Shown piece after piece: positions 600 to 17,469 of a stretch of DNA of 20,808 nucleotides (positions are counted from its first letter, which is position 1; every line of letters starts with the position of its first letter). Source of the DNA: Phoronis ovalis (lineage: Eukaryota > Phoronida > Phoronidae). The notes beneath the pieces were generated by a model. It was given only the letters and a program-made list of their open reading frames with translations. It made no database searches and was not told where the DNA came from. The stretch is taken from contig JAOXYB010072611.1 in assembly GCA_028565635.1 (NCBI GenBank), positions 2,992 through 23,799 on the forward strand. The letters are read 5' to 3'. A program made the position numbers and the translations under genes.

Positions 600-718
600 G
601 CAATGTGGCTGATGCTTCAACATGACAAGGCAGAAGATTTTGTTATTGCAACTGGTGTTACTACTAAAGTGCGAGATTTTGTTGTGCTAGCTTTTAAAGA
701 AATTGGAGTAGATATTGT
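600..718 (+). CDS. GMDS: GDP-mannose 4,6-dehydratase, internal exon (A of 4 visible)
   Basis: GMDS converts GDP-mannose to GDP-4-keto-6-deoxymannose with bound NADP in the cytosol, the committed step towards GDP-fucose. This exon reads [19 protein letters not shown] and continues to GVDIV, matching the family stretch [15 protein letters not shown], which helps form the nucleotide-sugar site of this extended short-chain dehydrogenase. It is bounded by an acceptor AG at 598-599 and a consensus donor GTAAGT at 719. It holds 39 codons plus two bases, so the following intron is phase 2 and the next exon supplies the missing base. The catalytic Thr-Glu-Tyr-Lys residues and the Rossmann nucleotide-binding glycines belong to exons upstream of the window. 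After IATG the protein has V where I recall human GMDS having E, as in bacterial Gmd; I read this as an ancestral residue and not as transfer, because introns interrupt the gene. Confidence 0.95.
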
Positions 719-970
719 GTAAGTTAACGAAAATTCAACAACAAAATCTTGCTCTGGTTGTTTGACAATTCTCTGCCGACTACTCTTTCCCTTTGATGTA
801 ACTAGTATATAATACCTTTGGTAACACACTTGCTTCAAATGAGGCATTAAAATGCAATACATTGTCCAATCCTGGTTATAATTGTGTATTTAGGGCTGCA
901 GTTATATGACGGCAAGGCTATTGGTTTTATATGTTTTTCTTTCTTCTAATTTTCAGCAAGCTATATCTGT

Positions 971-1428
971 TATATACCCGGGGTTCCGACTGAAATCACT
1001 GGTTGGTAGGCATGTGCATGAACAAAAACATGGAAAAAGGACAAATTTTAAGAACAAAGCATGTTAACGCAAATTAAGCATTTAGGGTTACATTTTTCGA
1101 TAAAATAGACAAAAGGGCATCTTATTTGATTAACTGTACGCGTTTAGGGTATCGAAATCGATCAAAACCCGTATCAGAACTATACTCTTGAAAACTGCCA
1201 ATCACTTGGCCAAACTTAGTCTCGAAGTTCAAGTGAATTTCCCATAATTCCGTTTCCCGGGCATTTTGCAAAAAAGAAATCTCAACGCATTTAGCATATC
1301 TTAAAATTTCTTCCAGTCAGTGAAAATGGGTCAACTTTTAAAAATAGGAAAACGCATTTAGGGGCTTTTTCAAAAACCGATTCACGCACATGGGTTAGTA
1401 TTTGATTCGGACCCCTGGGGTTATATAT
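971..1428. mobile_element. MITE-like non-autonomous DNA element
   Basis: The two ends form an imperfect terminal inverted repeat of about 25 bp. The left end reads TATATACCCGGGGTTCCGAC, and the reverse complement of the right end reads TATATAACCCCAGGGGTCCG, both followed by A/T-rich sequence ending in AAAT. The interior has no coding capacity but carries a recurring motif of the form ACGC(A/G)TTTAGGG at about 1131, 1285 and 1353, with a related GCATTTAGGG near 1079. Target-site duplications are unclear in the TA-rich flanks, so the exact ends are uncertain by a few bases. I do not recognise the family. Inverted ends with no gene fit a miniature DNA transposon, though a larger composite that includes the half-site cluster to the right is possible. 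Confidence 0.5.
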
Positions 1429-1483
1429 AGTTAGGGGCATGCCTCTTGTGCGGCATCCTTAGAAAGGACCATTATTGCCCTTC

Positions 1484-1815
1484 AGGTCATTTGGAGGTCA
1501 AATGCTATAAATGGAGAACAGCTAGTCCCTCGGGCTTGCAAATTGACTTAAGATGTCCCTAGGGTTGGGAAAATTGACTTTGAGGTCAGATAATCATCTA
1601 GAGGTCAAAATTGTGTGTGAAACTTTCAGAAATGTTTTAATTGAATTGGAGGTCATTAAGAAGTTAAGAGTCAGAGTGAGAAATCATTTTGAGATCAAAG
1701 GGTCATAACAAACAAAATTCATATATTTGCTGGAAAGTTATAAAATGACCTTGAAAAGTCATTTAGAGGCCACAAAGGGTCTATAAGTCAATTGCAGTCA
1801 CCCTTTACTTGACCT
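1484..1815. promoter_or_regulatory. Cluster of AGGTCA nuclear-receptor half-sites
   Basis: Exact AGGTCA occurs at 1484-1489, 1495-1500, 1583-1588, 1602-1607 and 1650-1655. The reverse form TGACCT occurs at 1746-1751 and 1810-1815. The first two are direct repeats with a 5-bp spacer (DR5), the classical RAR/RXR arrangement. AGATCA-A-GGGTCA at 1693-1705 is an imperfect DR1. TGACCTTGA at 1746-1754 is, on the minus strand, the extended monomer site TCAAGGTCA used by ERR/SF1-type receptors. A cluster this dense is far beyond chance, but it could be a decayed AGGTCA-containing repeat and not a working enhancer. Confidence 0.4.
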
Positions 1816-1858
1816 TACATAAACTTTATTTAGTAATGGGTGTTGCCTCTGGTTCATG

Positions 1859-1919
1859 CTGCCATCTGGTGCTGCTTGTGATATCTCAGAATGTACTGTA
1901 CTCTGCTGCCACCTGGTGG
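1859..1919 (-). promoter_or_regulatory. Two CTCF-like motifs, 47 bp apart
   Basis: Read on the minus strand, 1906-1919 is CCACCAGGTGGCAG, which fits all 14 positions of the published bilaterian CTCF core CCASYAGRKGGCRS. The neighbouring site 1859-1872 is GCACCAGATGGCAG and misses only the first position. Both lie in the same orientation in a GMDS intron. CTCF and its core motif are conserved across bilaterians, so insulator or loop-anchor use is plausible but unproven. Confidence 0.4.
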
Positions 1920-2172
1920 TCACATTTAGTTTTTGTTTAAAATGTTGATGTGTAAACTGCTGATATTTTTTTGTATTTCTTTTAAAAAGGCTGATTCTTG
2001 TTGCTTAAATAAAGCATACATTTAACAAAAGTAAACCACTTTGTAAAAATGTTTGAATAATTTTTTTAATTTGTGCAAGATTATATACATTATTCAACAG
2101 GCAAAGATATTTATTTTGTATATTCTTATTTAAACCATTAAAAAGTAATAAACCAATTTTTGTTTTTGTTAG

Positions 2173-16021: not shown

Positions 16022-16051
16022 CACGTTAATGTTTTATAAACATAAAACGTG
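16022..16051. promoter_or_regulatory. 30-bp imperfect dyad with a forkhead site
   Basis: CACGTT-A-ATGTTT-TAT-AAACAT-AA-AACGTG forms an interrupted palindrome with matching outer (CACGTT/AACGTG) and inner (ATGTTT/AAACAT) arms. It contains ATAAACA (16036-16042), a perfect RYAAAYA forkhead motif. It lies about 120 bp upstream of the FoxL1 TATA box, which suggests auto- or cross-regulation by a Fox protein. Confidence 0.35.
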
Positions 16052-16067
16052 ATACAGACTAGATTTT

Positions 16068-16170
16068 ATTGGTTAATATTAAACCTCTATTCTTTAACTG
16101 ACAACCGAGTGTATTCAACATTTATTTGCGTAACGGATGCTTTTGTTTTCCCGTCATTTAGCTTATAAAA
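16068..16170 (+). promoter_or_regulatory. Candidate FoxL1 core promoter (CCAAT and TATA)
   Basis: An inverted CCAAT box (ATTGG, 16068-16072) lies about 95 bp upstream of a good TATA box, TATAAAA (16164-16170). Transcription would then start near 16195-16200, giving a 5' leader of about 250 bases before the FoxL1 ATG. TATA-like words are common in this AT-rich DNA, so the assignment rests on spacing and on position just upstream of an intact gene. Confidence 0.4.
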
Positions 16171-16206
16171 ACATGAAAACATAGCAATATTTAAATACAC
16201 AATTTG

Positions 16207-16296
16207 ATGTGTAAACTACTTCTGAATATAAGAGGTTGGACATACACATTTAGTTTAGTTAGAAGTCGGACTCATCGGACGCATTTCACACCTTAA
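16207..16296 (+). other. Upstream ORF in the FoxL1 leader
   Basis: If transcription starts near 16195, the first ATG (16207) opens a 29-codon frame ending at TAA (16294-16296), before the FoxL1 start. Its context is weak (T at -3), so most ribosomes would scan past it, but it could dampen FoxL1 translation. The peptide resembles nothing I know. Confidence 0.25.
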
Positions 16297-16449
16297 TCTT
16301 GTGGTTTGACGGAAATTGAAAAGTTTCAAAACTGAATCAAGTGAAAGATAGAGACCTCGATACACCTATCAATCTACCAAGCAACATTTACCAGGCTTGA
16401 TACAGACACGCGATAATTAGTGGATAATTGGGACAATTTTTTAAAGATT

Positions 16450-17469
16450 ATGTCGGGACCAGCAGCTTTAGCCAGTCTTTACGCACGTCACTATGCCGTG
16501 GCCGATCCACGTTACGCAGCTGCGGCAGCGTATTCGAATCCAGCAAGTCTGTTTTATCCGCATGCTGGAGACTATAATCGAGCCTATGCCCTGAGCATGC
16601 TGGCAGAATTAGAGAGAAGGGAGCAACCTCAAAAGCCACCGTACTCATACATTGCTCTTATAGCCATGGCCGTAAAAAATGCTCCGGATCGCAAAATAAC
16701 TTTGAACGGTATTTACCAGTTTATTATGGACAGATTCCCGTATTATCACAGTAACAAACAAGGATGGCAAAACTCTATCCGTCATAATTTAAGTTTAAAT
16801 GACTGTTTTGTCAAAGTACCACGTGAGAAGGGTAAACCAGGTAAAGGAAATTACTGGACATTGGATGAAAATTGTGAAGATATGTTCGAAAATGGAAATT
16901 ATCGTAGGCGCAAACGTCGCGCAAAAGTACCGTACAGACCGTCTGATGGGTCATCACCGCAACATGATGGAGCAGACCACACATATGATGACGAAGAAGA
17001 AATTGTTGAAAATTTGGCGGGAAGCGAATCTGAAGCAGACGACAGTCAGCACGAATCAGCTAGTGAACAAGATAAGATGACATTATTTTCAATTGACAGT
17101 ATTATTGGCGAGAAAAAATCAGAAAATAACAATATAGAAAATAAAATCAAAGACTTGAACGAGCTGGAAAAGAAACCAAGCATATTTGACAAAATACCGA
17201 GCCCTCCACCAAAGATATCAGAAAGCAGACCAAGATTTCCAATGGGTTTTCCATTGGGAATGTATCCGGGAATGCTACCAGCTCATCCACTACCAAGCGC
17301 GGCAAACAGTCTTACAGGGTACCCAGGGAGTTTAAGCCCGCACTCAATGTCACCTTTCCTTAGATTTTCACCGTATGGAAATGGATACGTAAATCCGTTG
17401 CAGGTGTCTTTTCCTCACGGCACTGGAAAATCTGTAGCTGACTATGAACACTTAGAAAAGAAATTATGA
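16450..17469 (+). CDS. FoxL1: Forkhead transcription factor FoxL1
   Basis: An intact, intron-free gene of 339 residues encoding a nuclear DNA-binding protein. The frame is open back to a TAA at 16414-16416, but the first ATG is at 16450, with A at -3. The N-terminus is Ala/Tyr-rich. The forkhead domain covers about residues 60-158, from [16 protein letters not shown], through the recognition helix NSIRHNLSL (108-116), to [11 protein letters not shown], whose basic run (152-157) also serves as a nuclear localisation signal. [31 protein letters not shown] and [13 protein letters not shown] are the FoxL1 pattern; FoxC and FoxF differ there. An acidic stretch (about 173-208) follows. FSIDSIIG (213-220) is an eh1 motif that recruits Groucho/TLE co-repressors. 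The tail is Pro/Gly/Met-rich and ends DYEHLEKKL. In animals FoxL1 acts mainly in mesoderm and gut development. The lack of introns is usual for this subfamily. Another clustered Fox class is the only serious alternative. Confidence 0.95.

What the first reader, a model, noticed from the sequence alone, without database searches (positions are those of the whole stretch)
600..17469. GMDS next to a Fox-cluster gene: ancient microsynteny
GMDS exons and an intact FoxL1 lie on the same strand about 7.6 kb apart with no identified gene between. In human, as I recall, GMDS has its 3' end facing FOXC1 of the FOXQ1-FOXF2-FOXC1 cluster on 6p25, while FOXL1 sits in the paralogous 16q24 cluster. Here too the GMDS 3' end faces a Fox-cluster gene. 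This suggests GMDS was already attached to the ancestral bilaterian FoxC-FoxF-FoxL1-FoxQ1 cluster, possibly because GMDS introns carry Fox regulatory DNA (a genomic regulatory block).
Basis: partly seen in the sequence, partly recalled or inferred. Interest (0 to 1): 0.75.

Follow-up and report, generated by a model that had tools for sequence, protein, structure and literature searches.

The report
Ancient GMDS–FoxL1 gene neighbourhood in phoronid
In what is most likely a phoronid worm, the sugar-enzyme gene GMDS sits beside the developmental gene FoxL1; the two also share contigs in other distant animals, matching GMDS beside FOXC1 in vertebrates, so the link probably dates to the ancestor of bilaterian animals.

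Summary
This contig (a phoronid, by COI) carries the last four GMDS coding exons (600-8850) and an intact single-exon FoxL1 (16450-17469) on the same strand, 7,599 bp apart, with no recognised gene between. A tree places the Fox gene in FoxL1, apart from FoxC (93/82). The link is not peculiar to this genome. In capped lists of 120 proteins per gene, GMDS and FoxL1 share one 614,374-bp contig in the sea urchin Diadema, one 1,171,827-bp contig in the scallop Ylistrum and one 19,191,461-bp contig in the nemertean Lineus, and have consecutive locus tags in the snail Batillaria: 4 of 5 species found in both lists. The rotifer Adineta shows no match. Vertebrate FOXC1-GMDS adjacency is published. Overlaying published human clusters Q1-F2-C1-GMDS and F1-C2-L1 gives Q1-F-C-L1-GMDS, with GMDS beside FoxL1, as here. 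Ancient linkage is therefore likely. The proposed cause, Fox enhancers in GMDS introns, has vertebrate support but is untested here, and published data also point against it. Orientation probably differs from human. FoxC lies on another contig; FoxF and FoxQ1 were not recognised in the held 77 Mb.

The parts
600..718 (+). GMDS coding exon (fourth from the end), begins AMWLML
   Evidence: (62.5% to recalled human GMDS 258-297), splice borders
2173..2269 (+). GMDS coding exon (third from the end), [10 protein letters not shown]...YYRPTEV
   Evidence: (61.8%)
2270..8360 (+). GMDS intron of 6,091 bp, 31% GC; candidate place for Fox regulatory DNA (inferred, untested)
   Evidence: length, GC
8361..8429 (+). 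GMDS coding exon (second from the end), ELLLGDCTKAK...
   Evidence: (63.2%, E 0.003)
8788..8850 (+). last GMDS coding exon with TAA stop
   Evidence: (61.1%, E 0.024)
8851..16449 (.). 7,599-bp GMDS-FoxL1 intergenic space without a recognised gene
16450..17469 (+). intact single-exon FoxL1 (339 aa)
14880..14929 (+). upstream copy of a segment that follows the FoxL1 stop (86% over 50 columns)
17511..17558 (+). copy of that segment just downstream of the FoxL1 stop

Best explanation
This is a surviving piece of an ancestral bilaterian neighbourhood in which GMDS, an enzyme of GDP-fucose synthesis, lay at the FoxL1 end of the FoxQ1-FoxF-FoxC-FoxL1 cluster. After the vertebrate genome duplications one copy kept GMDS and lost FoxL1 (6p25: FOXQ1-FOXF2-FOXC1-GMDS) and another kept FOXL1 and lost GMDS (16q24: FOXF1-FOXC2-FOXL1), so human GMDS now abuts FOXC1. 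Most likely GMDS stays because enhancers of the Fox genes lie in its introns and in the adjoining space, making it a bystander of a genomic regulatory block: a break between them would cut FoxL1/FoxC off from their enhancers. Shown here: adjacency in this phoronid; shared contig in Lineus, Ylistrum and Diadema; consecutive tags in Batillaria. Published: the vertebrate FOXC1-GMDS pair and conserved elements in a human GMDS intron. Inferred: the ancestral order, the reciprocal loss, and the enhancer cause in phoronids.
For: Exons, frame and gap. FoxL1 identity by tree. Consecutive tags BaRGS_031630 / BaRGS_031631 in Batillaria. Vertebrate gene lists from PMC1634998. [quoted passage not shown] Conserved elements near FOXC1 that lie between GMDS exons 7 and 8 in human (PMC9597995). 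One human TAD holding FOXC1 and GMDS (PMC4701781). Duck gene model P0001 holds FoxC2 followed by FoxL1, in keeping with C-L1 order.
Against: Only a shared contig, not distance, is shown for Lineus (19 Mb), Ylistrum and Diadema; that tags run along the contig in Batillaria is assumed. Adineta steineri does not match (P0098 on 1,595,290; P0348 on 342,071; both clusters span several contigs, so inconclusive). As I recall the human strands, GMDS and FOXC1 are tail to tail, whereas here GMDS faces the FoxL1 promoter, so at least one inversion is needed. In zebrafish the conserved elements stayed with foxc1a, which lacks gmds, and none were found at foxc1b-gmds (PMC9597995). Tested enhancers of the FOXC1-GMDS region drove neural expression more consistently, like GMDS itself (PMC4701781), so some may serve GMDS. 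Owenia has lost close FoxF and FoxQ1 linkage and its authors argue for local, gene-specific regulation (PMC9539403). No conserved noncoding DNA was testable here.
Confidence: 0.68

Rival explanations
1. Slow decay only: GMDS and the Fox cluster were neighbours in the bilaterian ancestor and simply have not been separated in slowly rearranging genomes; no enhancer holds them together.
For: Three of the four matching invertebrates are spiralians, and Owenia keeps FoxC-FoxL1 while losing FoxF and FoxQ1 proximity, which fits piecemeal decay.
Against: The FOXC1-GMDS pair persists in skate, mouse and gar within one human TAD dense in predicted enhancers.
Confidence: 0.2
2. Shared targets: GMDS is not a bystander; enhancers of the region serve both GMDS and the Fox gene, and co-regulation keeps the pair together.
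For: Tested human enhancers of the region drove neural expression resembling GMDS more consistently than FOXC1-like mesenchymal expression (PMC4701781 passages).
Against: In zebrafish the conserved elements stayed with foxc1a without gmds (PMC9597995 passages).
Confidence: 0.04
3. Chromosome-level link only: GMDS and FoxL1 belong to the same ancestral chromosome, and close proximity here, in Batillaria and in vertebrates arose by chance or separately.
For: Lineus shows only the same 19-Mb contig; orientation differs from human as recalled.
Against: Same contig of 0.6 Mb and 1.2 Mb in Diadema and Ylistrum, 7.6 kb here, consecutive tags in Batillaria.
Confidence: 0.06
4. Chance neighbour or misassembly in this one genome.
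For: A single draft contig of 23.8 kb.
Against: Independent co-location in 4 of the 5 species found in both lists and the published vertebrate pair.
Confidence: 0.02

Closest known systems
Vertebrate FOXQ1-FOXF2-FOXC1-GMDS block (human 6p25)
   Same: GMDS neighbours a gene of the FoxC/F/L1/Q1 cluster; its intron and the intergenic space there carry conserved or predicted regulatory elements (PMC1634998, PMC9597995, PMC10115646, PMC4701781)
   Different: The neighbour here is FoxL1, not FoxC; GMDS points at the Fox 5' end, while in human the pair is tail to tail as recalled; the gap here is 7.6 kb; regulatory DNA here is untested
Bilaterian FoxL1-FoxC-FoxF-FoxQ1 cluster
   Same: A FoxL1-class gene of the cluster is present
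   Different: FoxC is on another contig of the held assembly (C3580) and FoxF/FoxQ1 were not recognised; clustering with FoxL1 is untested; GMDS is not named in the two invertebrate Fox papers checked
Genomic regulatory blocks / ancient metazoan microsynteny
   Same: A developmental regulator next to an unrelated metabolic gene, kept over long times
   Different: No conserved noncoding element or contact map is available for this locus

Membership tests
FoxL1 class | Groups with labelled FoxL1 proteins and apart from FoxC, D, E, F, L2 and Q1 | tested here: met
   34-row clade at 93/82 (below the tool's star of 95/80) with Owenia, Saccoglossus, Branchiostoma and vertebrate FoxL1; FoxC (own, duck, PDB) forms its own clade at 99/98; FoxF1 and FoxQ1 rows were recalled, and several outgroup rows are long-branched
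FoxL1 class | Intact forkhead domain in one open frame | tested here: met
GMDS | GDP_Man_Dehyd family; best solved chains named GDP-mannose 4,6 dehydratase | tested here: met
   only the C-terminal third is in the contig
GMDS | Full-length catalytic domain | not testable with these tools
   contig bases 1-2991 read N; searches of the held genome found no further exon but also missed two of the four known ones
FoxC-FoxF-FoxL1-FoxQ1 cluster | Two or more of these genes linked | tested here: inconclusive
   FoxL1 on C4426, FoxC on C3580, both short contigs; FoxF/FoxQ1 not recognised among 17 forkhead matches, most classed by eye
Genomic regulatory block | Gene pair kept across distant lineages | tested here: met
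   (4 of 5 species in both capped lists; by contig or tag, not distance); published vertebrate pair
Genomic regulatory block | Conserved noncoding elements or enhancers of the regulator in the bystander | not testable with these tools
   no second phoronid or brachiopod DNA available; published evidence is for vertebrates only

The most novel reading that the evidence does not exclude
GMDS was a founding bystander of a five-gene bilaterian block, FoxQ1-FoxF-FoxC-FoxL1-GMDS, already present before protostomes and deuterostomes split. Enhancers of FoxL1/FoxC in GMDS introns have pinned it there since; in vertebrates the two partners were parted by reciprocal loss after genome duplication, so the FOXC1 elements in the human GMDS intron descend from enhancers first laid out beside FoxL1.
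Probability: 0.4. Interest if true: 0.68.

Novelty: new member of a known kind. Interest (0 to 1): 0.52.

Why it matters
FOXC1-GMDS is a medically relevant vertebrate regulatory block. Finding GMDS beside FoxL1 in invertebrates places the origin of the block near the bilaterian ancestor, explains why human GMDS sits by FOXC1 while FOXL1 is on another chromosome, and gives a concrete test of whether ancient enhancers, rather than slow decay, hold gene neighbourhoods together.

Tried and rejected
Rejected: (1) The Fox gene being FoxC: several spiralian relatives carry FoxC1-like names, but those put in the tree (32 of the 120 listed proteins, plus one half of a fused model) fall in FoxL1. (2) A decayed second FoxL1 upstream: a short copy of the post-stop segment exists at 14880-14929, but tblastn gave nothing better than E 0.15. 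(3) A further gene in the gap: nothing over a Pfam cut-off in nine gap frames, no Rfam match; a small frame at 10408-10524 behind a splice-acceptor-like stretch had no convincing match in the PDB (best E 0.2). (4) Extending the contig: it is 23,799 bp with bases 1-2991 N. (5) GMDS 5' exons elsewhere: none found, a weak negative because the same searches missed two of the four exons known here. (6) FoxC contig C3580: frames of 60 aa or more were listed and looked over, no other large frame; they were not scanned against Pfam, and the left 4.1 kb or so reads N. (7) Irimia 2012 and Touceda-Suarez 2020 are not held, so an earlier listing of a GMDS-Fox pair in invertebrates cannot be excluded.

Limits of the contig-length test: only the best 120 rows are listed, of 7,941 and 7,932. 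By my reading five species are named in both lists: Batillaria, Lineus, Ylistrum, Diadema, Adineta steineri. Mytilus appears as two different species (edulis for Fox, galloprovincialis for GMDS; lengths differ) and was not counted. Rows without contig data (Fox: P0007, P0029, P0073, P0087, P0104; GMDS: P0242, P0259, P0295) could not be compared by length; Batillaria was compared by tag.

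Full report
What is in the window. The window is bases 2992-23799 of a 23,799-bp contig (C4426) of a genome held as 77.4 Mb in 4,805 contigs; the contig left of the window reads N. The mitochondrial COI of the same assembly is 91% identical to Phoronopsis harmeri and, in a tree of it with 24 of the 120 listed proteins, groups with Phoronopsis and one unnamed row at 99/99 (the bootstrap had not fully settled). The animal is most likely a phoronid. The species is not resolved.

GMDS. Four coding exons, 600-718, 2173-2269, 8361-8429 and 8788-8850, follow AG acceptors, the first three end at GT donors, and they join in frame to a TAA stop. 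They match the C-terminal 115 residues of human GMDS in order at 61-63% (human sequence recalled; the two short exons alone are weak, E 0.003 and 0.024) and hit PDB GDP-mannose 4,6 dehydratase chains at about E=5e-40. The 5' part of the gene is not in the contig. No further exon was found in the held assembly, but those searches also missed two of the four exons known here, so that absence says little.

FoxL1. The frame 16450-17469 codes 339 aa with an intact forkhead domain. In a tree of 46 rows it lies in a 34-row FoxL1 clade (93/82, just below the tool's star) with labelled FoxL1 of Owenia, Saccoglossus, Branchiostoma and vertebrates, apart from FoxC (99/98), FoxD/E, FoxF/Q1 and FoxL2. The gene begins 7,599 bp beyond the GMDS stop on the same strand. 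Nine frames in the gap and one downstream reached no Pfam cut-off, and Rfam found nothing.

Is the neighbourhood more than chance? No collection of animal genomes is offered, so no second locus could be read. The protein database, however, prints the length of the contig behind each protein. The FoxL1 search and the GMDS search listed the best 120 rows each, of 7,941 and 7,932. Among 115 contig lengths on the Fox side and 117 on the GMDS side, exactly 3 are shared, each by proteins of one species: Lineus longissimus 19,191,461 (P0006, P0244), Ylistrum balloti 1,171,827 (P0026, P0263) and Diadema antillarum 614,374 (P0086, P0293) (about 2e-4 equal lengths expected among 1,920 pairs of contigs over 100 kb, lengths taken as log-uniform). 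Each of these six clusters stands for one contig. In Batillaria attramentaria the two proteins bear consecutive locus tags, BaRGS_031630 (Fox, P0029) and BaRGS_031631 (GMDS, P0242); that tags run along the contig is assumed. A fifth species in both lists, Adineta steineri, shows different lengths (1,595,290 and 342,071), but both clusters span several contigs, so it is inconclusive and counted as no match: 4 of 5. All five Fox proteins fall in the FoxL1 clade. What is shown is a shared contig; distance is known only for the window and, by tag, for Batillaria.

Vertebrates. Wotton and Shimeld 2006 (PMC1634998; Results section and passages read) list human chromosome 6 as DUSP22, IRF4, EXOC2 (printed EXCO2), FOXQ1, FOXF2, FOXC1, GMDS, MLCKF2, and chromosome 16 as PSF2, NOC4, COX4I1, IRF8, FOXF1, FLJ12998, FOXC2, FOXL1. 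Its Background passage gives the FOXC and FOXF numbers the other way round, which I take for a slip. The skate genome paper (PMC10115646, passages) shows Foxc1/Gmds as an example of deeply conserved microsynteny; its set is skate, mouse and gar. The zebrafish foxc1 paper (PMC9597995, passages) places two conserved elements between human GMDS exons 7 and 8 and one in the FOXC1-GMDS gap; it also reports that the downstream elements stayed at foxc1a, which has no gmds, and that none were found at foxc1b-gmds. Human FOXC1 and GMDS share one TAD, but enhancers tested there drove neural, GMDS-like expression more consistently than FOXC1-like expression (PMC4701781, passages).

Reading. Laying the two human paralogous clusters over each other gives Q1-F-C-L1-GMDS: GMDS would abut FoxL1, as in this window. 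Reciprocal loss after genome duplication then explains why human GMDS is beside FOXC1 and FOXL1 is elsewhere. This is my inference. A duck gene model holding FoxC2 followed by FoxL1 (P0001) agrees with C-L1 order. In the hemichordate Saccoglossus foxC and foxL1 share a scaffold (PMC4077281, passages), and in Owenia foxC and foxL1 are tightly linked while foxF and foxQ1 are far off (PMC9539403, passages); a term search finds no GMDS in either main text.

What does not fit or is open. The strands differ: GMDS points at the FoxL1 promoter here, while the human pair is tail to tail as I recall. FoxC is on another contig (C3580), and FoxF and FoxQ1 were not recognised among the 17 forkhead matches of the held assembly (five of the other genes were placed in the tree, the rest classed by eye), so the cluster itself is not shown here. 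The enhancer cause is not tested. The Owenia authors argue for local regulation.

Is it in print? Searches for GMDS with FoxC1+synteny, microsynteny, Fox cluster and FoxL1, and for GDP-mannose with FoxL1, show, as far as titles and abstract starts go, no invertebrate GMDS-Fox report; Irimia 2012, the likeliest place, is not held. Vertebrate FOXC1-GMDS is known; the invertebrate GMDS-FoxL1 link and the placement of GMDS at the FoxL1 end seem to be additions to a known kind.

Noticed in passing
14880-14929 and 17511-17558: A segment just after the FoxL1 stop codon recurs 2.6 kb upstream, in front of FoxL1 (86% over 50 columns, 57 bits; best of 30 block shuffles 34.6). In the held 77 Mb the search reports only these two places. 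Possible duplicated control element or remnant; unexplained.
   Followed up: partly
10408-10524 (+): A short frame (MFSWQDLSGKPDIAKQLKDTFGSLIYKSVMQI) behind a splice-acceptor-like stretch, about 1.6 kb past GMDS; no convincing match.
   Followed up: partly
2653-2709: A perfect 27-bp unit in 2.1 tandem copies inside the large GMDS intron.
   Followed up: no
L008, L013, L016 (own contig C4585:2686-5858): Two FoxQ2-like forkhead stretches about 3 kb apart; in one the domain reads in two overlapping frames (sequence error or pseudogene). Another FoxQ2-like gene is on C4778. Classes assigned by eye.
   Followed up: no
L003 and L004 (own contigs C1243 and C4022): Two FoxG-like genes, which group together in the tree (100/99).
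   Followed up: partly
P0003, P0006, P0011, P0022, P0023, P0026: Database names call these spiralian proteins FoxC1-like; the tree places them in FoxL1.
   Followed up: yes
P0001 (Aix galericulata), P0055 (Pimephales promelas): Database gene models that appear to fuse two forkhead genes: FoxC2+FoxL1 in the duck (supported by the tree), and by eye an E3-like and a D-like one in the minnow.
   Followed up: partly
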